Under the pieces are notes generated by a model. The model had not been told where the DNA came from, searched no databases, and saw only the letters and a program-made list of their open reading frames with translations. From positions 2,170,001 to 2,234,000 of the forward strand of contig NZ_BAFN01000001.1 in the NCBI RefSeq assembly GCF_000949635.1: DNA of 64,000 nt, written 5' to 3'. Below, piece after piece: positions 43,512 through 52,999 of the stretch (positions within the stretch are counted from its first letter, which is position 1; every line of letters begins with the position of its first letter). Made by a program: the position numbers and the translations under genes. This DNA is from Candidatus Brocadia sinica JPN1. Lineage in GTDB: Bacteria > Planctomycetota > Brocadiia > Brocadiales > Brocadiaceae.

Positions 43512-44195
43512 ATGCAACCAAAAATTAAAATCGCAGCATCCATCCTCGCTGCTAATCCTGTACGACTAGAAGATGAAATTAGAAAAGTAGAAACAGCAGG
43601 CGCAGATTTGATCCATATTGATGTTATGGATGGTCATTTTGTTCCAAATATTACTATGGGTCCGTTCATAGTAGAAGGAATAAGGCGTATTGCTCAGGTG
43701 CCTTTAGACATTCACCTGATGATTGAACACCCTGAACGGTATGTGGATGCATTTGCCGGTGCGGCAGGGGATGGAGATCTGATAACATTTCATATAGAAA
43801 CCACGAAAAAACCGAAAGAAATTATTTCTCTGATTAAGAATGCGGGGTTAAAGGCCAGTGTATCGCTGAATCCAGATACACCGACCGAGTTGGTTGAAGA
43901 TCTTCTGGAGATGGTGGATATGGTGCTTGTCATGTCTGTAAATCCAGGTTTTGCCGGGCAAAAATTTATATCAAAGGTTTTGCCAAAGATTGCAAGATTG
44001 CGCAGTATCGCACCAGATGAAATGGATATCGAAGTTGACGGCGGTATTACAACAGAAACGATTACTCAGGCTGTACAACAGGGGGCTAATGTGATAGTTG
44101 CTGCCTCCTCGATTTTTAAAGCTGATGACCCATGCGCCGCAATCAAAACCCTCAAACAAATTGCAGAGCGGGTTGATAACAAAGTAAAGGCGTAA
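43512..44195 (+). CDS. rpe: Ribulose-phosphate 3-epimerase
   Basis: 227 aa from ATG 43512; the earlier in-frame start at 43473 adds a non-conserved leader. 'IKIAASILAANPVRLEDEIR', metal and catalytic motifs 'LIHIDVMDGHFVPNITMG', 'LDIHLMIEHPERYVDAFAGA', 'VMSVNPGFAGQKFI' and 'EVDGGI' define RPE. It interconverts ribulose-5-P and xylulose-5-P in the pentose phosphate pathway. A hairpin at 44247-44267 follows. Confidence 0.96.
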   Translation: MQPKIKIAASILAANPVRLEDEIRKVETAGADLIHIDVMDGHFVPNITMGPFIVEGIRRIAQVPLDIHLMIEHPERYVDAFAGAAGDGDLITFHIETTKKPKEIISLIKNAGLKASVSLNPDTPTELVEDLLEMVDMVLVMSVNPGFAGQKFISKVLPKIARLRSIAPDEMDIEVDGGITTETITQAVQQGANVIVAASSIFKADDPCAAIKTLKQIAERVDNKVKA

Positions 44196-44246
44196 ATTTT
44201 CCTATCAGAATTTTAAAAAGGCTTGTTTTTACGAGTTCACTTAGCT

Positions 44247-44267
44247 GAAAAAACAACTTGTTTTTTC
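44247..44267 (+). terminator. Hairpin after rpe
   Basis: GAAAAAACAA-C-TTGTTTTTTC, a perfect 10-bp A/T-rich stem followed by CTT. It may attenuate read-through into accD, which starts about 125 nt further on. Confidence 0.5.
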
Positions 44268-44416
44268 CTTAAAAATTTATAAACTATAGTCTCGTATCTT
44301 ATCGGATTGGATTTTGAAATAATCTGATATTGGAATTGCTCTTTTAAGATACCTATAAAAAATTTTATAACAGGTGGGGTGTTTTTCCCAATGGTTTTCT
44401 TCAGAAAAAAAAGGAT

Positions 44417-45202
44417 ATGCCCAATGGTTTGTGGGTACGTTGTGAAGGCTGTAAGGGCATGCTGTTTAAAAAGGTTGTTGAAGAAAAAATGTTTGTGTGC
44501 CCTGAATGCAACTATCACTTTCGGATATTCAGCAGAGATAGGTTGAAGCTTTTGGTTGATGAAAACAGCTTTGAGGAAATGTGGGCTAATATGGTGCCGT
44601 GCGACCCGTTAAGTTTTAAAGATCGGGTAACTTACCCTGAAAGGGTAGCTGCTGAGCAACAAAAGACCGGTCTCAAAGAGGCTGCAATTGTAGGAAAGGG
44701 AAAGATCAATGGGAGAGAGGTGATGATTGGAATTACCGACCCATCTTTTATCATGGGAAGCATGGGTTCCGTGGTTGGAGAGAAGATTGCCCGGATTGCA
44801 GAAAAAGCTATGGAACTGAAGCTACCTTTGATTATTATTTCAGGTTCTGGTGGTGGCGCACGCATGCAGGAGGGCGTTTTTTCTCTTATGCAAATGGCAA
44901 AGACGAGCGCTGCTATAGCACGATTTCAAGGGGCTGGTGGTTTGTATATATCGATACTAACAGATCCATCTTTGGGTGGAGTAATGGCCAGCTTTGCGTC
45001 TTTGGCTGATATTACGATAGCGGAACCAAAGGCACTGATAGGTTTTGCAGGTCCCAGGGTTATTCAAGAGACGATAAAGCGTACCCTTCCGAAGGGTTTT
45101 CAAACGGCTGAGTTCTTACTGGAGCATGGCTTTTTAGATAGGATTGTCAATCGTCAGGATATGAAAAAAGAATTATTCAGAATGATTAGTTATCTGCAAT
45201 AA
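44417..45202 (+). CDS. accD: Acetyl-CoA carboxylase carboxyltransferase beta subunit; N-terminus in another frame
   Basis: 261 aa as read from ATG 44417. Zinc ribbon CEGC...CPEC (residues 9-34), then the crotonase-like core with '[20 protein letters not shown]' and '[20 protein letters not shown]'. The usual AccD start lies just upstream: ATG 44391 gives MVFFRKK and then an 8-A run at 44405-44412; one more A would fuse it in frame as [23 protein letters not shown] precedes 44391. So either slippage on A8, a real deletion with restart at 44417, or a sequencing error. It transfers the carboxyl group to acetyl-CoA in fatty acid synthesis. Confidence 0.93.
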
Positions 45203-45228
45203 TTTATAGAAAGAGAAGATAAAAAGAT

Positions 45229-45303
45229 TCCCCTGTAGCTCAATGGTAGAGTAGCCGGCTGTTAACCGGTTGGTTGTAGGTTCGAATCCTACCGGGGGAG
45301 CCA
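45229..45303 (+). tRNA. tRNA-Asn (GTT)
   Basis: Full cloverleaf with encoded CCA: acceptor TCCCCTG with CGGGGGA, discriminator G, D-arm GCTC/GAGT, anticodon loop CTGTTAA (anticodon GTT) on stem GCCGG/CCGGT, and T-loop TTCGAAT. It is flanked downstream by a serine-recombinase remnant. Confidence 0.97.
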
Positions 45304-45315
45304 ATTTTGCCCATA

Positions 45316-45349
45316 GGCAGAACTTCTATTCCCGAGGTTCTGCCTTTTT
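45316..45349 (+). terminator. Terminator after tRNA-Asn
   Basis: GGCAGAAC (45316-45323) pairs with GTTCTGCC (45337-45344), followed by TTTTT. Good factor-independent terminator of accD-tRNA or the tRNA alone. Confidence 0.85.
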
Positions 45350-46007
45350 CATTTATAATTTATAATAGGAATGTTATAGTCAATCTTGATTTCCGGGTGG
45401 TTGACAACAATCCTTTTAATAAAGGATCTCAAGAAGGACTTTTGTTCGGCAATTGGGCTTTTATGGAGAAGGTCGGAAAGGTCTTGAACATAGTTTTTTA
45501 GGGTCTTTAAATCAAAAGGTAAAGTTTTTGGATTTTTTATTTCCTCGACAATTTCATCCCGATTCGTTTCCAGTGTATTTATTTGTCCTCTAATCTCCTT
45601 TATTCTGGGAGCAAGGTCATCAACATTGAGCTTGTCAGATTCAAGGGAGTAATAGAGCTTATTTAGTTTTTCTTGTAAAATTCCAATTGTTTATCAATTA
45701 TTTTAACTTGGTCCTCTGAATCTCTTTTATGCTGGTTAATTTCGTTAAGTACAATATTGAAAAGCTCTGTCAGATTTTCCTCTGTAAGAATATGAGTTTT
45801 TATGTGTTCAATAATAAGAAGCTCAATTTCTTTCTTTTTGATGAGCCTTGCACTGCAAATGTCTTTTCCTCGTTTAATGTAATTATGGCAAGCATAGTAA
45901 AAATGTTGACCAGATTTTGCCGAACTCCCTATCATTTTTGCCTTACATTTTCCACAGTAAATAAGCCCGCTTAAAAGATAGTCGTTTGTAATCTCTCTTG
46001 GGATCAA
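45349..46007 (-). pseudogene. Large serine recombinase remnant (zinc ribbon and coiled coil)
   Basis: Starting at 46007, 'LLSGLIYCGKCKAKMIGSSA', 'HFYYACHNYIKRGKDICSAR' are the recombinase zinc beta-ribbon (C..C...C...C). The frame stops after 'QLEFYKKN', but a shift by one base continues the coiled-coil and C-terminus (LQEKLNKLYYSLESDKLNVD ... IKRIVVNHPEIKIDYN) to a stop at 45349. The N-terminal catalytic domain with the active Ser is absent; a Y1 element sits where it should be. It abuts tRNA-Asn, a common integration site, so it is probably the scar of an integrated element. Confidence 0.85.
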
Positions 46008-46025
46008 TTCCGATCAATTAATTCA

Positions 46026-46581
46026 GGGGACACCATACTTAATTATTGGCTTTGTTTTTAAAATTATTAATATGTCCACATGGCCAGAATTGCTCGTGTG
46101 GTCGCACCAGAAGTACCACACCATATTACTCAGCGAGGAAATCGCCGTTTGAAGACATTCTTCTGCAACGAGGATTATGAGGGATACATAGACTTGATGT
46201 CCCAGTGAGGTACGCACTGGAACATTGAAGTATGGGCATATTGCCTGATGCCAAACCATGTACACCTAATTGCAGTTCCGCCTTCTAAAAAGGCGTTTAG
46301 TCAGGCGATTGGCGAAGCGCATCGGCGCTACACGCGTCGCGTAAACTTTCGGGAAGGTTGGAGAGGACACCTATGGCAAGGACGTTTTGCTCTCAAAGGG
46401 TCTATCGGATGAGGAAGTCGAAAAGCTTCGATGTTACGAGCGAACCGGGAGACCTCTTGGCACTGACAGTTTTTTGGCATGGCTTGAAAATGTACTTGGT
46501 AGAATACTCCGTAAGCAGAAACCTGGCCAAAGGTGACTCAAAAGAAAAATAAGAATCTCTAAAATTAAGTATGGTGTCCCC
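46026..46581 (+). mobile_element. Dead Y1-transposase element with 19-bp inverted ends
   Basis: GGGGACACCATACTTAATT (46026-46044) and its exact reverse complement (46563-46581) bound a broken Y1 transposase gene. The sequence outside both ends also resembles AATTC. The element interrupts the serine-recombinase remnant. Confidence 0.8.
46080..46536 (+). pseudogene. Y1 (IS200-like/REP-type) transposase, broken
   Basis: ATG 46080 gives 'MARIARVVAPEVPHHITQRG', then an internal TGA after DLMSQ, then 'YCLMPNHVHLIAVPPSKKAF' with the HxH motif, 'EGWRGHLWQGRF', and after a deletion and frameshift 'EEVEKLRCYERTGRPLGTDS' to TGA 46534-46536. The order matches PF01797-type transposases ending in TGRPLG, with the middle (Tyr-containing helix) lost. 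Clearly inactive. Confidence 0.85.
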
Positions 46582-46898
46582 GAATTCGCGCAAGAATACC
46601 GGAGAGAAGACGAAGGATACTATGGATGGAGACGTCCTGGAACTTACGGGGGATGAGTGGGAGGAGGAGACAGGACAGTTGGCTGGAATATTTGGAGTAA
46701 GTAACGAGGAGGAAATACCCCTGAGGTGTGTAAGCGCTTTACAGGAGGATAGTGAGCGGTTTTATGTGTTGGAGGTACTGGGAAAGAGTGAGGATAGTTT
46801 GCAGGTGGGTGTGATGGAGTGGAGGAAGGTAGGGTTTGTGAATGGTGGTCTAAGGAGTGTCAGCGGTTTGTCCCTGAGGTGGAAGCCGAGTCATACAG
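46582..46898 (+). other. Unrecognised coding-like stretch
   Basis: An acidic open frame from ATG 46622 (DVLELTGDEWEEETGQLAGI, 'FGVSNEEEIPLRCVSALQED') runs into the kelch-like segment in another frame. No family recognised. It is likely the broken 5' part of the same former gene or an unrelated fragment in the decayed island. Confidence 0.35.
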
Positions 46899-47237
46899 TT
46901 ATAACCTGCCGGAGATTGCATCAGGAGCCCCCCAATCATACGCCCCCAACACCTGGTCTCCAACGACTGTTACTCCAGCCCCGTCTGCCCGTATCGGGCA
47001 GACGGGGGTGTGGACGGGCTCGCAGATGATCGTGTGGGGGGATGGAATGGCACGAATTATTTCAACACCGGCGGACGCTATAACCCCACAACAAACACAT
47101 GGACGGCCACATCCACCACAGGCGCCCCCTCTGCCCGATTCAGGCACACGGCGGTGTGGACGGGTGCACAGATGATTGTGTGGGGCGGATGGAATGGTAC
47201 GAGTTATTTCAACACCGGAGGTCTCTATACCCCATAA
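46899..47237 (+). pseudogene. Kelch-repeat (beta-propeller) fragment, frameshifted
   Basis: Two kelch-like repeats: 'APSARIGQTGVWTGSQMIVW' in one frame and 'GGWNGTNYFNTGGRYNPTTN', 'APSARFRHTAVWTGAQMIVW', 'GGWNGTSYFNTGGLYTP' in the next, joined by a one-base loss in the G6 run near 47035 (seven G would keep the frame). A stop follows at once, so most of the propeller is missing. It appears to be the tail or a fragment of a surface/exported kelch protein. Confidence 0.7.
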
Positions 47238-47270
47238 GAGGCATGGGAAAAAAGCTTCTTGTGGAAAGGG

Positions 47271-47315
47271 AAGGTACGAGGAGGGACACGGTATTTCCGG
47301 GTCCCTCCGTACCTT
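47271..47315 (+). terminator. Hairpin after the kelch fragment
   Basis: AAGGTACGAGGAGGGAC pairs with GTCCCTCCGTACCTT apart from a small bulge, loop of about 12 nt. No strong U-tract follows, so it may be a repeat hairpin rather than a terminator. Confidence 0.45.
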
Positions 47316-47520
47316 GTGAAAAAGGGGATTTATAAATGTCTAATTCTAGTCCGAACAAGTCGGAACGTATAGTGCGGGTGGTTTACCCCGTTAGCTATGA
47401 GATATCGAACAGGAGACACAATGAAAATTCACAAGTTTCCAAAGTCCCGTTACTCACTACAATACAATATCTCACGGGGTTGATTCCCACTAAAGTGCCG
47501 ACCACAAGGGTTCGGCGCTA

Positions 47521-47760
47521 GTGCGCCTGAAAGTGCACAATGCCAGAGGGGGTGAAAGTCCCCTTCAGGGAAAACGCTTTCCGCCCTGCAACAGACCGTA
47601 ACTGCGAGACTCTATGGCCGGTTCAATCTTGCAGATAGAATCAGAAATTTCAAGTTTGGTAGCCGAACAGCTGACAAACTGAGCATTGTACGCGATGCCA
47701 GGGCGCAGACTGAAGTCTACGGCTACCAAATACCCAAAAACCGCATAAAAAAGGAACCAT
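47521..47760 (+). ncRNA. Possible 5' fragment of a group II intron
   Basis: GTGCGCC at 47521 fits the conserved 5' end (GUGYG), and AGGGGGTGAAAGTCCCC shortly after is a typical domain I hairpin of bacterial group II introns, followed by a structured 'CAACAGACCGTAACTGCGAG' region. No reverse transcriptase frame and no domain V/VI is seen before the next gene, so it is truncated if real. Assignment rests on pattern memory. Confidence 0.4.
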
Positions 47761-47856
47761 GGGTGACCCTTCTTTCTTCTTACAGTAGTAAGGAAGGTAT
47801 ACACAACGTCTTAAGTAATTGCGCATAAAGGCGTTGTTTAGAATTGATAGCCTATC

Positions 47857-48933
47857 CTACAAATACTGGATAATCTGTGTCCTTCCATATTCCCTTTCTC
47901 CTCTTTCAATCTTCAATGCCCCCAAACGTATTGTTGCAATTTTAGAAATATTGCTCACGGGGGTGAAGAGTGTTATTTTTCCGGCAAAAGGATCTAAATC
48001 GGTAACAGTGCCAAGACCCAGGGTAGTATTGTTTTCGTCGTTGAGGCCCACTAAAAGGTCTTTTAATTGTTGTCTTTCAATCAGTACAACCGAGGAAGCG
48101 CCAAAATAACCTTTCAGTTTATAGACCGGTATTGATACGTCCATGTGGTCTGGCATGATCAGGAGTTCAGTGCCACATTTTTCCATGTAGAGATGGTTCA
48201 TACCATGGATGCAGGCTTCTTTTGGTAATTCGGCTGGTTGTATCCTTTGACCGGTACCTATAATACAAGATGGGAATGCCACCTTGTGAATTGGGCAATC
48301 TACGATTTTTGCCGATTTGAAATATGCTTTATATTTTTCACTCCTGTATCTCTGCCTTTCGGCCTGTGAACGGGTTACTACGTGTTTCGAACATACCAGC
48401 CGCATAACCTGCCAACCCATTTTTTCGTAACCTCTCAAAAGATGTTCCATCTCGTCTTCTGCCTGTAACGCAAGAATCCGTTGCGGACGAAGCATTTCTA
48501 TTTTATGGAGTTTCAGGATGCGGGCGACGGGCCCATCAATAAAACCTGTCGTGTCTACCAGGGTGATATGTGAGCCTTGTTGCTGGGATTTGTCAACCAT
48601 CGTTTTTATTGCATGAAGTGTCTGCAATAAAAAACCTTCGGGTGCAGTATTTCCTACAAAATGGAGATATAAGGGGTTTGCAGAATTATTTTGATGCGGA
48701 GGTGTGTTGAAAATCTTTAAACTTACCGTTGTTGGCGGGCCTAATGTAGATTGGCCTAAATCGCTATCGACATATCCCACGCGTGTTCCGGAAGCCGCCC
48801 ATGTATGGATCAGATACTTACACAGGGTGCTTTTGCCGCTATCGGTCTTGCCAAGGACAATACATACTTTTGCGTCTTGCTTTATCCGCTTTGCTGCCTG
48901 CTCCCATTCCTTCCGGATATCGATCGTGTCCAT
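47857..48933 (-). CDS. Grc3/Clp1-type polynucleotide 5'-hydroxyl kinase
   Basis: 358 aa. Walker A 'VCIVLGKTDSGKSTLCKYLI' near residues 24-43, 'GYVDSDLGQSTLGPPTTVSL' (the DxDxGQ-like Clp1 signature) and 'HITLVDTTGFIDGPVARILK' belong to the Clp1_P/NOL9-Grc3 family, which phosphorylates 5'-OH ends of RNA or DNA. In eukaryotes and archaea it acts in RNA processing; bacterial members are uncommon and may serve RNA repair. Its ATG overlaps the recJ stop by one base (TAATG), so the two are co-translated, linking it to nucleic-acid repair. Confidence 0.87.
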   Translation of the reverse strand: MDTIDIRKEWEQAAKRIKQDAKVCIVLGKTDSGKSTLCKYLIHTWAASGTRVGYVDSDLGQSTLGPPTTVSLKIFNTPPHQNNSANPLYLHFVGNTAPEGFLLQTLHAIKTMVDKSQQQGSHITLVDTTGFIDGPVARILKLHKIEMLRPQRILALQAEDEMEHLLRGYEKMGWQVMRLVCSKHVVTRSQAERQRYRSEKYKAYFKSAKIVDCPIHKVAFPSCIIGTGQRIQPAELPKEACIHGMNHLYMEKCGTELLIMPDHMDVSIPVYKLKGYFGASSVVLIERQQLKDLLVGLNDENNTTLGLGTVTDLDPFAGKITLFTPVSNISKIATIRLGALKIERGEREYGRTQIIQYL

Positions 48934-50666
48934 TATTCATTATCAAATTTTACGTCTTTAACCTCCAGCTCCAGTTGCTCATTATCCATCCAATTATTTA
49001 TTTTTACCGCAAAGGCAATTGAACACGTCCTTCCATTTTGTCTAAGTCTGTCCATGTGCTCTCCCATACCAAAGGCAACTGCCCTGATGGCTGCGTCTCC
49101 CTGTTTAACATAGAAACTCAGATGTTGTCCTTTCGAGCCGATACGGCGCGGCTGTCCGACAATTTTTAAATTTGTAGCAGCAAATAAGGGTATGGGATTT
49201 CCCTCACCGTGGGGGGAGAGGCGTGCAAGCTCCGTTACCAATGCCTTGGACAACATGGAGAGTGTGACTTCCGCATCAATATTCAGGACGGGCACCAGAT
49301 CCGTCTTGCAAAGTCTTTGAGATGTCATACTATTGAGCATCTCACGAAAGGCATCAATATTATCCGGGTGTATCTTTAATCCTGCGGCTTGTGCATGACC
49401 ACCCACAGAAAGTAATTTATTCCTGCAATTTTCAAGGGCCTCCAGGATATGAAATGAGGGAATGGAACGTGCGGAACCGTGACCGATGTCATCCGCAACG
49501 GCAATCATTACGGTGGGACGATTAAATTCTTCTACAATTTTCGAGGCAATAATCCCAATAACCCCTGGATGCCATCCCTCGTCTGCCAATACAATAGCGG
49601 TGGTTTCATCCAGGTCTAATTCGTGTAATACCTTTTTCCTTGCTGACGCCATGATATCAATCTGGATTTCCTGCCTTCTTTTATTCTCCTGTTCCAGAAA
49701 ATTGGCAATTTCCACGGCCCTTTCCTTGCATCTCGTGATTAACAGTTCAACGACAATGCCTGCATTGCCTATACGGCCTGGAGCATTCAACCGGGGTCCC
49801 AAACGATATCCTACATGAAAGGCATCGAGATTTCTGTGAGAAATATCTGCCACATCAAGGAGCGCTCGCAACCCTGGGATTTCAGTATATTGCAACGCAC
49901 TCAGCCCATATTTTGTAACGATACGGTTTTCACCCAGGAGTGGCACCACATCAGCAATCGTTCCCAAAGCCACCAGACCTACAGCGCTTAGCAGGAAATC
50001 CTTGAATTCCGAAGAGACCTTCTTCTGAGGTGAAAAATGCTGCCCAATGGCCCATGCCAGCTTAAAGGCAATGCCAACGCCAGAGAGGTTATGAAACACA
50101 TGGTTGGATGCATGTAATTTTGGATTGACTACCGCAAAGGCATTGGGTATTTCCTGACCGGGCCGATGGTGATCGGTAATAATCAGGTCGATGCCATGTG
50201 TGCGTGCAATATCTGCCTCCCGGCAGGCATTGATACCGCAGTCTACCGTCAAAATGACGTTTGCCCCACCTTCCCGAAGCTTTTTAATTGCGTCTGCATT
50301 CAAACCATATCCCTCTTCCAGCCTTTCCGGGATATAGTAACTTACCTTTGCCCCCACCAATTCCAGGCACCGATACATGAGCGCCGTGGCCGATAGGCCA
50401 TCGACATCATAATCGCCGTAAATGACGATTTTTTCTCCCTTCCGTACGGCCTCGTTGATACGAATGGATGCCTTTTCAATATCCGGCAGAAGAGAGGGGT
50501 CTCCCAATGCCCCAATCTGTGGCTGGAGAAAGCTTCTGGCAGATGCGACATCAATGATCCCGCGATTGATAAGAACCTGAGCCAGCAATTGCGATATTTT
50601 GAGTCTGCTGGCAAGCTCTGTTTGCAGTGGCTTGTTAGGGGGACAAAATACCCACCGTTTAATCAT
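48933..50666 (-). CDS. recJ: Single-strand DNA-specific 5'-3' exonuclease RecJ
   Basis: 577 aa. Metal-binding motifs 'KIVIYGDYDVDGLSATALMY' and 'DLIITDHHRPGQEIPNAFAV' (DHH), then DHHA1 domain with 'GGHAQAAGLKI' and the C-terminal OB-like part. It degrades single-stranded DNA 5'-3' in recombination and mismatch repair. It is the first gene of a two-gene unit with the polynucleotide kinase, divergent from the exporter at 51110 across 443 bp. Confidence 0.95.
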   Translation of the reverse strand: MIKRWVFCPPNKPLQTELASRLKISQLLAQVLINRGIIDVASARSFLQPQIGALGDPSLLPDIEKASIRINEAVRKGEKIVIYGDYDVDGLSATALMYRCLELVGAKVSYYIPERLEEGYGLNADAIKKLREGGANVILTVDCGINACREADIARTHGIDLIITDHHRPGQEIPNAFAVVNPKLHASNHVFHNLSGVGIAFKLAWAIGQHFSPQKKVSSEFKDFLLSAVGLVALGTIADVVPLLGENRIVTKYGLSALQYTEIPGLRALLDVADISHRNLDAFHVGYRLGPRLNAPGRIGNAGIVVELLITRCKERAVEIANFLEQENKRRQEIQIDIMASARKKVLHELDLDETTAIVLADEGWHPGVIGIIASKIVEEFNRPTVMIAVADDIGHGSARSIPSFHILEALENCRNKLLSVGGHAQAAGLKIHPDNIDAFREMLNSMTSQRLCKTDLVPVLNIDAEVTLSMLSKALVTELARLSPHGEGNPIPLFAATNLKIVGQPRRIGSKGQHLSFYVKQGDAAIRAVAFGMGEHMDRLRQNGRTCSIAFAVKINNWMDNEQLELEVKDVKFDNE

Positions 50667-51109
50667 GGTGTTTTCGTTTATGAGAAAGGTATAATATTGT
50701 TAAAATGTAAAACTCAAATTCAAATGTATCAAAAAACAAACGACAGTATGTATTATTCAGCGCCAGGTAACTCTTTTTGGTTGCGGCTTGCTGTGTCAGG
50801 TGTTATCATTTTACTTTGATTTGTAAGTCTTTCAAGGAAATTTAATTATTTTTCATTTTTCTCTATTCTTCCCGGTATTTTATCACTTTAACCTTGTGTC
50901 CGCATTTTAACAAGGCAAGTGAACAGAAAATCTTTTATTGAAAAACATGCAATGATGTGATAGCATTTTGCTGTAGCTTTGCGATACTTCGCCATTGATG
51001 TCAAAAATAGTGGACTGGCCCAATGTTCCTTGTTTTGTTCCTCCACCTTGTATCACGGTATCACGGTAATTCTTCAGAACTTTTCGTTTTATAATCAATT
51101 AAGGAATCA
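50667..51109. other. 443-bp divergent spacer
   Basis: No gene seen. A direct repeat TATCACGG occurs twice in a row (about 51052-51067). It should hold promoters for recJ and for the msbA-like gene; none is strong enough to name. Confidence 0.4.
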
Positions 51110-52999
51110 ATGAGAAAAAGCACTCTTTTTAGCGAATGTGCCAAGTTATTGTCATTCGCAAGACCTTACTGGAAATACATGGCATTAGCCATTATCAGTA
51201 TGATCATGTATACCTCGGCAAATGGTGTCCAGATTTCATTAATCAAGCCTATCATAGACAAACTTCTGATAGGGAATGCAGAAAAGGTGGAAGAGTTGCC
51301 GAGGATCGATATAGAGCAGGATATACAAAAACAAGGTAACCAATCTCCTGTTAAACAGTTTAAAAATCAGATATTCCACAAATTTGCGTTTATAGAAAAA
51401 CTACAAAAACATGCTACAAGTTCATTTACGAACATCGGCATTGTGATGGCAATTGTCGCCCCCATTATTTTCTTTTCCTGTTATTTCCAGCAATACTTCA
51501 GAAATCTTGTCATGTGGGCCGTTGTTGTGGACATCCGGAATAAGGTATGCGACCATTTACTCCCACAACCCCTGAGTTTTTTTGAAAACAGGAAGAGCGG
51601 CGACCTCCTTTCCAGGTTAACGAATGACATTGCTGTAACGCAGTCAGGACTTACGGTCCTTTTTGATGAAATCCTGCTGCAACCCTTAAAATTGATTTGC
51701 GGATTGACTCTGGCATTTTATTTTAGCTGGAAGCTTTCCTTGTTGACCCTGATTGCCTTTCCTGTGATATTCATTCCTGTGCTGATCATGGGCAAAAAAA
51801 TCAAGAAGCATGGGAAGGGAAGTTTGCGGCATCTCTCTGACCTCACAGATGCCTTGCGGGAAATGTTTGCAGGCATTCGAATTGTGAAGGCGTTTAAGAT
51901 GGAGGCTGAAGAGAGCCGTGAAATCCACGACATCAGTGACCGATTCTTCAGGAAAAGGCTGAAGATGGTCAAGGCAAAGGCAATCAACACGAGTACCAGT
52001 GAATTCGTTTATGCCCTGGGTCTCGCTGTCTTGATTATTTTGGGAGGCTATGTGGTTGTGTCAAAGAAAATCACTCCGGGGGAACTCGGTGGGTTTATTA
52101 CCGCCATAGGTTTTATGGTGATTACGACCGTCAAGAAACTGGCCAAGAGTTATGCAAGTTTGCAAGAATCCCTGGCGGGTGTCAATCGGGTATTCGAACT
52201 ATTCACGATAGAACCCACGATAAAAGACCATGCCGGGGCCGTGACGCTGAAGCACGTAGAAGAAGGCATTTCTTTTAAGGACGTGAGTTTTTCCTACGAA
52301 AACAGTGAGGAGTTTGTCTTGAAAGATATCAACCTTACCATCCGCAAAGGAGAGATACTTGCTATTGTGGGTAAGAGCGGGGCCGGGAAATCGACTCTGG
52401 TAAACCTGATACCCCGTTTCTATGACCCTGTCAAAGGCGCCATAGAGATAGACGGAATAGATATACGAAAGATTAAACACGAATCGCTCCTCACACACAT
52501 TGCAATAGTCTCCCAGCAAACCTTCCTCTTTAACCGCAGTCTCCGTGAAAACATACTCTACGGGAGAAGGGATGCTACAATTGAAGAAATTTATGCAGCG
52601 GCAAGGTCTGCCAATATCCATGAATTTATTATGAGCCTCTCCAAAGGTTACGATACCGTTGTGGGTGAATTGGGGGTAAAACTATCCGGAGGGCAGCGTC
52701 AACGGATTGCCATTGCCCGCGCCATACTGAAAAATGCACCCATTTTACTCTTAGATGAAGCGACTTCGTCGCTGGATTATGAATCTGAGAAACTGGTACA
52801 AGATGCACTCAATAACCTCATCGCCGGAAAAACGACCATCATCGTTGCCCATCGCCTTTCCACAATCCAGCATTGTGACAGAATCATCGTAATGCAAAAT
52901 GGACATATTGTAGAAACAGGCAGTCACGACTCCCTCATGTCAGGTGAGGGAGAATACAAACGCGTGTACCAGTTGCATTTTGATACACTTCAGTCATGA
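51110..52999 (+). CDS. MsbA-like lipid/multidrug ABC exporter (fused)
   Basis: 629 aa, AAGGAATCA before ATG 51110. Six membrane helices with a larger external loop between helices 1 and 2 (about 45-100, acidic), then an ATPase with Walker A 'VGKSGAGKSTLVNL', signature 'LSGGQRQRIAIARAIL', Walker B 'ILLLDEATSSLDYESEK' and H-loop 'IIVAHRLSTI'. The order and length fit MsbA-type homodimeric exporters that flip lipid A core or related lipids. The next gene (rfbD) overlaps its stop by 4 nt, consistent with lipopolysaccharide-type surface biosynthesis. Confidence 0.9.
   Translation: MRKSTLFSECAKLLSFARPYWKYMALAIISMIMYTSANGVQISLIKPIIDKLLIGNAEKVEELPRIDIEQDIQKQGNQSPVKQFKNQIFHKFAFIEKLQKHATSSFTNIGIVMAIVAPIIFFSCYFQQYFRNLVMWAVVVDIRNKVCDHLLPQPLSFFENRKSGDLLSRLTNDIAVTQSGLTVLFDEILLQPLKLICGLTLAFYFSWKLSLLTLIAFPVIFIPVLIMGKKIKKHGKGSLRHLSDLTDALREMFAGIRIVKAFKMEAEESREIHDISDRFFRKRLKMVKAKAINTSTSEFVYALGLAVLIILGGYVVVSKKITPGELGGFITAIGFMVITTVKKLAKSYASLQESLAGVNRVFELFTIEPTIKDHAGAVTLKHVEEGISFKDVSFSYENSEEFVLKDINLTIRKGEILAIVGKSGAGKSTLVNLIPRFYDPVKGAIEIDGIDIRKIKHESLLTHIAIVSQQTFLFNRSLRENILYGRRDATIEEIYAAARSANIHEFIMSLSKGYDTVVGELGVKLSGGQRQRIAIARAILKNAPILLLDEATSSLDYESEKLVQDALNNLIAGKTTIIVAHRLSTIQHCDRIIVMQNGHIVETGSHDSLMSGEGEYKRVYQLHFDTLQS

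What the first reader, a model, noticed from the sequence alone, without database searches (positions are those of the whole stretch)
47857..50666. Bacterial Grc3/Clp1-like kinase co-translated with RecJ
A eukaryote/archaea-type polynucleotide 5'-kinase overlaps recJ by one base (TAATG). RecJ needs 5'-phosphate ends, so the kinase could prepare them.
Basis: partly seen in the sequence, partly recalled or inferred. Interest (0 to 1): 0.6.

Follow-up and report, generated by a model that had tools for sequence, protein, structure and literature searches.

The report
Clp1-type kinase gene overlapping recJ
An anammox bacterium carries an RNA/DNA 5'-end kinase of a kind best known from eukaryotes and archaea, in a gene that overlaps the DNA-repair nuclease gene recJ; the pairing is old within this family, but the kinase has been lost many times while RecJ stayed intact, so it looks like an optional RNA-repair enzyme rather than a required partner of RecJ.

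Summary
The 358-aa ORF is a Clp1-family 5'-hydroxyl polynucleotide kinase (Pfam CLP1_P, 138 bits; predicted fold matches human and worm Clp1 at Z about 28) with intact Walker A, clasp-core and lid residues. Its ATG shares one base with the stop of a canonical recJ. Adjacency is conserved only in one family of anammox bacteria (Brocadia, Jettenia, Kuenenia, Loosdrechtia): all 24 genomes with any trace of this kinase have it directly behind recJ, and 19 of 20 junctions examined overlap. None of 66 other loci from bacteria and archaea has recJ beside it. Within the family the kinase is intact in 16 of 30 genomes, broken in 5, a short remnant in 3 and gone in 6 (at least 7-10 changes on the RecJ tree), while RecJ and its 5'-phosphate pocket are unchanged. 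A bacterial Clp1 was already shown to be an RNA-preferring kinase. RecJ end preparation is therefore possible but not the best reading; an accessory RNA 5'-end kinase riding on recJ's expression is. Nearly every genome of the family also has an archaeal-type RNA ligase that needs 5'-phosphate RNA. New member of a known kind.

The parts
47857..48933 (-). Clp1-family 5'-hydroxyl polynucleotide kinase gene (358 aa)
   Evidence: CLP1_P 138.1 bits; model pLDDT 90.8, Clp1 fold Z 28.5
48933..50666 (-). recJ, single-stranded-DNA 5'-3' exonuclease (577 aa; DHH, DHHA1, OB domains)
   Evidence: TIGR00644 546 bits; DHH, DHHA1 and RecJ_OB; aligns to DrRecJ 5f54
48931..48935 (-). TAATG: recJ stop TAA and kinase ATG share one base
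   Evidence: 19 of 20 family junctions have an in-frame start overlapping the recJ stop (-1, -4 or -7), one (L038) lies +6
48826..48852 (-). Walker A (residues 28-36, GKTDSGKST)
   Evidence: G28, G33, K34 invariant in 24 and in 35 aligned proteins
48751..48762 (-). D58-x-G60-Q61 motif
   Evidence: invariant in 24 and in 35 aligned proteins
48541..48552 (-). clasp core T128-T-G130-F131 (Phe where the animal Clp1 and NOL9 in the alignment have Trp)
   Evidence: T128 and G130 invariant in A1; in A3 G130 invariant and T128 at least 90%
48343..48372 (-). lid region with R193 and R197
   Evidence: R193 and R197 invariant in 24 and in 35 aligned proteins
47881..48309 (-). C-terminal beta-rich domain (about residues 209-351)
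   Evidence: model secondary structure; Clp1 alignments run to model residue 343-345
51110..52999 (+). divergent ABC transporter gene, upstream neighbour of recJ in most of the family
   Evidence: Pfam ABC_membrane and ABC_tran; neighbour table

Best explanation
A genuine Clp1-family ATP-dependent 5'-hydroxyl polynucleotide kinase entered an ancestor of the Brocadia-Jettenia-Kuenenia family of anammox bacteria directly behind recJ and has since been inherited vertically as the second gene of a recJ-clp1 overlapping pair. Shown here: homology, motif conservation, predicted fold, conserved overlap, purifying selection, and repeated loss. Inferred: translation of the kinase is coupled to that of RecJ, and its main job is to put 5'-phosphates on 5'-OH RNA ends (such as those left by RNase toxins or other nucleases that leave 2',3'-cyclic phosphates), turning them into ends that the archaeal-type RNA ligase found in nearly all these genomes can join, or that 5'-monophosphate-sensing decay can take up. 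Phosphorylating 5'-OH ssDNA for RecJ would be a minor or occasional activity. The function is accessory, not essential.
For: CLP1_P match, PDB profile hits Clp1, clpf-1, NOL9 and GRC3, fold match, motifs. A bacterial Clp1 (Thermus) is an active RNA-preferring kinase (PMC6777427, section 12 part 1 and sections 14 and 15 read). dN/dS median 0.186 for the 16 intact copies (recJ 0.065; 71 of 120 pairs, those with dS under 2 in both genes). An RNA ligase of the PF09414 family is in 29 of 30 genomes; in the window's genome it is TIGR01209 with a Pab1020 C-terminal region, about 30 kb from the kinase. The relative MthRnl joins 5'-phosphate to 3'-OH RNA (PMC5599603, start of abstract in search listing). 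One clade of family kinases (SH-aLRT 100); loss while RecJ stays intact.
Against: No activity or expression data. The RNA ligase and RtcB are present whatever the state of the kinase, so neither co-varies with it. The kinase keeps its place behind recJ although neighbours on both sides change (upstream ABC transporter not next to recJ in 4 of 17 loci, downstream glycine-cleavage block absent in 11 of 17), which fits some functional or expression tie to recJ. The Trp after the clasp core in human Clp1 is Phe here.
Confidence: 0.5

Rival explanations
1. One reading: the kinase phosphorylates 5'-OH ssDNA ends so that RecJ can anchor them in its 5'-phosphate pocket and resect them.
For: Overlapping gene pair conserved in the family; pocket residues conserved in all 29 RecJs examined; DrRecJ binds the terminal 5'-phosphate (PMC4846377, passages); 5'-phosphate stimulates MjRecJ1 on ssDNA (PMC5615345, passages).
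Against: Kinase lost or broken in 14 of 30 genomes that keep recJ; no recJ beside clp1 in 66 other loci; Ts-Clp1 prefers RNA; DrRecJ excludes ribose and makes the next 5'-phosphate itself at each step.
Confidence: 0.2
2. No shared function: the kinase gene landed behind recJ by chance and survives only where it keeps recJ's promoter and ribosome traffic; it is on its way out of the family.
For: Repeated loss; dN/dS about three times that of recJ; unrelated neighbours in other lineages.
Against: dN/dS still well under 1 (largest of 71 pairs 0.34); motifs intact in the aligned family copies; the pair is still found in 7 genus groups of the family (g1, g2, g4, g5, g6, g10, g11).
Confidence: 0.2
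3. The P-loop protein is not a polynucleotide kinase but a nucleotide-binding regulator or small-substrate kinase, as yeast Clp1 has no kinase activity (stated in PMC6777427, section 15).
For: Clasp Trp replaced by Phe; elsewhere the family neighbours an NTPase_1 (THEP1-like) gene in several loci.
Against: Walker A Lys34, Asp58, lid Arg193 and Arg197 all conserved; Ts-Clp1, also bacterial, is active.
Confidence: 0.1

Closest known systems
Bacterial Clp1, Thermus scotoductus Ts-Clp1 (PMC6777427)
   Same: CLP1_P domain, bacterial, short N-terminus; [quoted passage not shown]
   Different: Ts-Clp1 is described as lacking N- and C-terminal domains (about 27 kDa); this protein has a C-terminal domain aligned with that of eukaryotic Clp1, and its gene overlaps recJ
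Eukaryotic Clp1 (C. elegans 4ohy, human in TSEN complex 8hmy)
   Same: Predicted fold over model residues 1-344, Z 27-28.5, 278-282 residues aligned
   Different: 16-19% identity; no eukaryotic N-terminal domain; Phe in place of clasp Trp
Grc3/NOL9
   Same: Same kinase core, Z 18-22
   Different: No large N-terminal part; presence of the Las1 nuclease partner not tested
Bacterial RecJ (D. radiodurans 5f54, TIGR00644)
   Same: DHH-DHHA1-OB layout, pocket and catalytic residues
   Different: Only the gene partner is unusual

Membership tests
Clp1/Grc3 polynucleotide kinase family | CLP1_P profile over the curated cut-off | tested here: met
   138.1 bits vs 26.6
Clp1/Grc3 polynucleotide kinase family | Walker A GxxDxGK(S/T)T and D-x-GQ motif | tested here: met
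   G28, G33, K34, D58, G60, Q61 invariant
Clp1/Grc3 polynucleotide kinase family | Clasp core T-x-G (followed by Trp in human Clp1 and NOL9) | tested here: met
   T128 and G130 kept; the residue after them is F131 here and Phe or Leu in most relatives aligned
Clp1/Grc3 polynucleotide kinase family | Lid arginines | tested here: met
   R193, R197 invariant in 24 and 35 sequences
Clp1/Grc3 polynucleotide kinase family | Clp1 fold including C-terminal domain | tested here: met
   pLDDT 90.8; Z 28.5 to 8hmy_E, 278 aligned, rmsd 2.8; unrelated rows start at Z 12.8
Clp1/Grc3 polynucleotide kinase family | 5'-OH polynucleotide kinase activity | not testable with these tools
   needs purified protein
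Grc3/Nol9 subfamily | Large N-terminal part before the kinase core | tested here: not met
   Walker A starts at residue 28 of 358; Grc3 chains align only from about residue 127-236
Bacterial RecJ | TIGR00644 over cut-off with DHH, DHHA1 and OB domains | tested here: met
   546 bits vs 396.9; three Pfam domains
Bacterial RecJ | 5'-phosphate pocket of DrRecJ (R109, R280, S371, R373) | tested here: met
   R115, R298, S398, R400 read off the alignment, checked (29 of 29)
Conserved recJ-clp1 functional unit | Adjacency across lineages | tested here: not met
   only in one family; 0 of 66 other loci
Conserved recJ-clp1 functional unit | Co-loss or co-variation of the two genes | tested here: not met
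   recJ kept in 14 of 14 genomes whose kinase is broken, a remnant or gone (G003's recJ is cut by its contig end)

The most novel reading that the evidence does not exclude
In anammox bacteria RecJ and a Clp1-type kinase form a translationally coupled 5'-end healing and resection module: the kinase licenses 5'-OH DNA (or RNA-DNA) ends, made by stress, toxins or phage nucleases, for RecJ; its patchy loss reflects a facultative stress or defence role.
Probability: 0.15. Interest if true: 0.55.

Novelty: new member of a known kind. Interest (0 to 1): 0.32.

Why it matters
Bacterial Clp1 proteins are scattered and, in the papers seen here, have no known cellular role. A lineage with a stable gene context, an archaeal-type RNA ligase in the same genomes, and natural presence/absence pairs of close relatives gives a place to test what a bacterial 5'-OH kinase is for. 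It also shows how a tidy overlap of two genes can suggest a mechanism that the pattern of gene loss does not bear out.

Tried and rejected
Rejected: an obligate RecJ partnership (loss pattern). Rejected: a conserved bacterial recJ-clp1 unit (0 of 66 loci outside the family; the one weak recJ hit there, L182 at 27% over about 109 residues, is not next to clp1). Rejected: descent of all Brocadiales kinases from one ancestor within the order; the family's kinases group with Latescibacterota and Nitrospiria (SH-aLRT 82), other Brocadiales with a different set (97) (quick tree, many open forks).

Led nowhere: co-variation with RtcB (29 of 30 genomes), with RNA ligase PF09414 (29 of 30) and with RNase J (TIGR00649 over cut-off in 0 of 30). 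In the phylum TIGR01209 is over its cut-off in 29 of 392 genomes: 23 in this family, 5 in family f4, 1 elsewhere; lineage explains this, so it is no independent test of a link. Promoter and terminator scans gave about as many sites as shuffles, or fewer. Rfam found only a tRNA in 44000-52000. Neighbours of clp1 elsewhere differ by lineage. Literature: no paper of the held library has RecJ, Clp1 and kinase together as whole words; 'bacterial Clp1' is in two papers (the second seen only in the listing); 'RecJ' with 'polynucleotide kinase' and 'adjacent gene' gives one unrelated paper; the one paper with anammox, polynucleotide kinase and genome is unrelated by title and abstract. Subscription papers and preprints were not searchable.

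Rows dropped before counts: one search used one clp1 ORF per locus from 56 of the 66 non-family loci (my simple ORF caller missed 10) and 8 of the 14 family loci, and left out L175 (fragment) and L052, L053, L054 (repeats of L214, L162, L188). Of 33 genomes in the family, G024, G027 and G032 (84, 83 and 58% complete) were not counted because no recJ was found; two searches found neither gene there. G003's recJ is a 194-residue piece at a contig end; it was in the tree but not. The dN/dS medians use 71 of 120 pairs. One search found 144 relatives and kept the best 80; the other 64 were not seen.

Full report
The window holds a 358-aa ORF (47857-48933, minus strand) that is a Clp1-family polynucleotide kinase (CLP1_P 138.1 bits, cut-off 26.6) and a 577-aa recJ (48933-50666, minus strand; TIGR00644 546 bits, cut-off 396.9). 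Stop and start share one base, TAATG. The window genome has no other CLP1_P match at E <= 0.001.

The kinase looks active. Gly28, Gly33, Lys34 (Walker A), Asp58, Gly60, Gln61, Gly130, Arg193 and Arg197 are invariant in a 24-sequence and in a 35-sequence alignment; Thr128 is invariant in the first and at least 90% in the second. The residue after the clasp core is Phe131, where human Clp1 and NOL9 have Trp in the alignment. A profile search of solved structures gives human Clp1, C. elegans clpf-1, NOL9 and GRC3 first. The predicted structure (pLDDT 90.8, pTM 0.89) matches human Clp1 at Z 28.5 (278 residues, rmsd 2.8) and worm Clp1 at Z 27.3-28.1; Grc3 follows at 20-22 and unrelated SRP-type GTPases at 12.8 and below. 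The alignment includes the C-terminal domain, which the authors say is absent from the one characterised bacterial enzyme.

That enzyme is Ts-Clp1 of Thermus scotoductus (PMC6777427; abstract, section 12 part 1 and sections 14 and 15 read). It phosphorylates ssRNA with a Km for ATP of 2.5 uM, and ssDNA only at larger enzyme amounts. The same paper lists the family in 144 bacterial species, and its main text does not mention RecJ. So a bacterial Clp1 kinase is not new in itself.

Adjacency. Of 33 genomes in the window's taxonomic family (f1), 30 have recJ. Named records for contigs of the same lengths show that the family includes Brocadia, Jettenia, Kuenenia and Loosdrechtia. In 20 genomes, the window's included, a kinase gene or a large part of it lies directly behind recJ. 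Four more carry a remnant of its N-terminus starting right after recJ: G002, G004, G010, and G031 at a contig end. In the named collection 14 of 14 family loci have the pair, and 0 of the other 66 have recJ next to clp1 within the DNA held, which is short for some of them. Of 20 junctions examined, 19 have an in-frame start overlapping the recJ stop, by 1, 4 or 7 bases; in L038 the start is 6 bases downstream. Other neighbours are less stable: the divergent ABC transporter is missing next to recJ in 4 of 17 loci where it could be seen, and the downstream glycine-cleavage block (gcvT-gcvH with a Cys-rich ORF; named from the sequences, not from a profile search) is missing in 11 of 17 (counts made by eye on 19 loci, L032-L050, two without visible neighbours on each side). 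So the pair has been kept, or the kinase has died when parted from recJ.

Loss. Among the 30 genomes the kinase is intact in 16, broken in 5 (G001 and G003 frameshifts, G009 late stop, G014 truncated, G031 in-frame stop at a contig end), a short remnant in 3 (G002, G004, G010) and without trace behind recJ in 6 (G012, G016, G017, G018, G020, G023); G016 has a distant Clp1 elsewhere. In G012, G018 and G020 recJ is followed directly by the glycine-cleavage block. On a RecJ tree this needs 10 changes (8-10 over bootstraps, at least 7 forced by well-supported branches), and intactness is hardly clustered (as low in 124 of 500 shuffles). Some of the frameshifts could be assembly errors; the remnants and absences are harder to explain so. 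RecJ's catalytic and 5'-phosphate-pocket residues are the same in all 29 sequences examined, and RecJ is hardly more divergent where the kinase is lost (mean pairwise distance 0.198 against 0.190). The intact kinases are under purifying selection, median dN/dS 0.186 against 0.065 for recJ over 71 of 120 pairs.

Origin. The family's kinases form one clade (SH-aLRT 100) nearest to Latescibacterota and Nitrospiria proteins (82); kinases of other Brocadiales form another group (97). One acquisition behind recJ by the family's ancestor, then vertical descent and repeated loss, fits best. This is inference from a quick tree with many open forks.

Mechanism. But RecJ makes the next 5'-phosphate itself, bacterial RecJ is DNA-specific, the characterised bacterial kinase prefers RNA, and RecJ does without an intact kinase in nearly half of the genomes. 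An RNA role is more likely. Of 30 family genomes 29 have an RNA ligase of PF09414, which is TIGR01209 with a Pab1020-type C-terminus in the window's genome, and TIGR01209 is nearly confined to this family and family f4 within the phylum (28 of 29 genomes over the cut-off, 392 searched). Its archaeal relative joins 5'-phosphate and 3'-OH RNA ends (PMC5599603, start of abstract in search listing). This link is circumstantial: ligase and RtcB are present whether or not the kinase is.

Verdict: a real Clp1-type kinase in a real, family-specific overlapping pair with recJ; most likely an accessory RNA 5'-end kinase; RecJ end preparation remains open at about 0.2.

Noticed in passing
L095:6468-8012 (genome G261, Planctomycetota): A CLP1_P domain (52.3 bits) is followed in the same ORF by a metallo-beta-lactamase-type stretch (Lactamase_B_2, 26.8 bits, just under its cut-off of 27), possibly a kinase-nuclease fusion.
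   Followed up: partly
L155:2573-3088, L092:5772-6410, L057:8123-8659, L188:8095-8616, L214:6421-6954: In a Latescibacterota locus and several Planctomycetota loci clp1 neighbours a THEP1-like gene (NTPase_1 by Pfam in L155 and L092; the others by sequence likeness), four of them downstream on the same strand, L092 upstream.
   Followed up: partly
L168:3892-4539, L177:8050-8712, L194:8008-8661, L219:8142-8798: In Armatimonadetes and two unnamed bins clp1 is followed on the same strand by a histidine phosphatase gene (Pfam His_Phos_1 for L168; the others cluster with it).
   Followed up: partly
L056:7806-8522, L059:5685-6416, L092:7368-8102: DUF72 genes beside clp1 (Pfam run on L056; others by sequence likeness); a DUF72-like ORF also lies beside the RNA ligase in L229:3702-4442.
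   Followed up: partly
G000:C1:2246500-2251500 (L227), outside the window: The TIGR01209 RNA ligase lies divergent from a TrkA_N-DHH-DHHA1 protein; the same two genes are divergent neighbours in G025 (L229).
   Followed up: partly
window 45229-47800: Downstream of the kinase: a tRNA gene (45229-45300), a recombinase zinc-ribbon fragment (45666-46007, minus strand), what looks like a decayed REP-type transposase (46085-46540, judged by eye) and repetitive remnants, a scar of mobile elements.
   Followed up: partly
L051:1571-2428 (G016): This family member lost the recJ-linked kinase but has a different, Nitrospirota-like Clp1 elsewhere in the genome, a possible replacement.
   Followed up: partly
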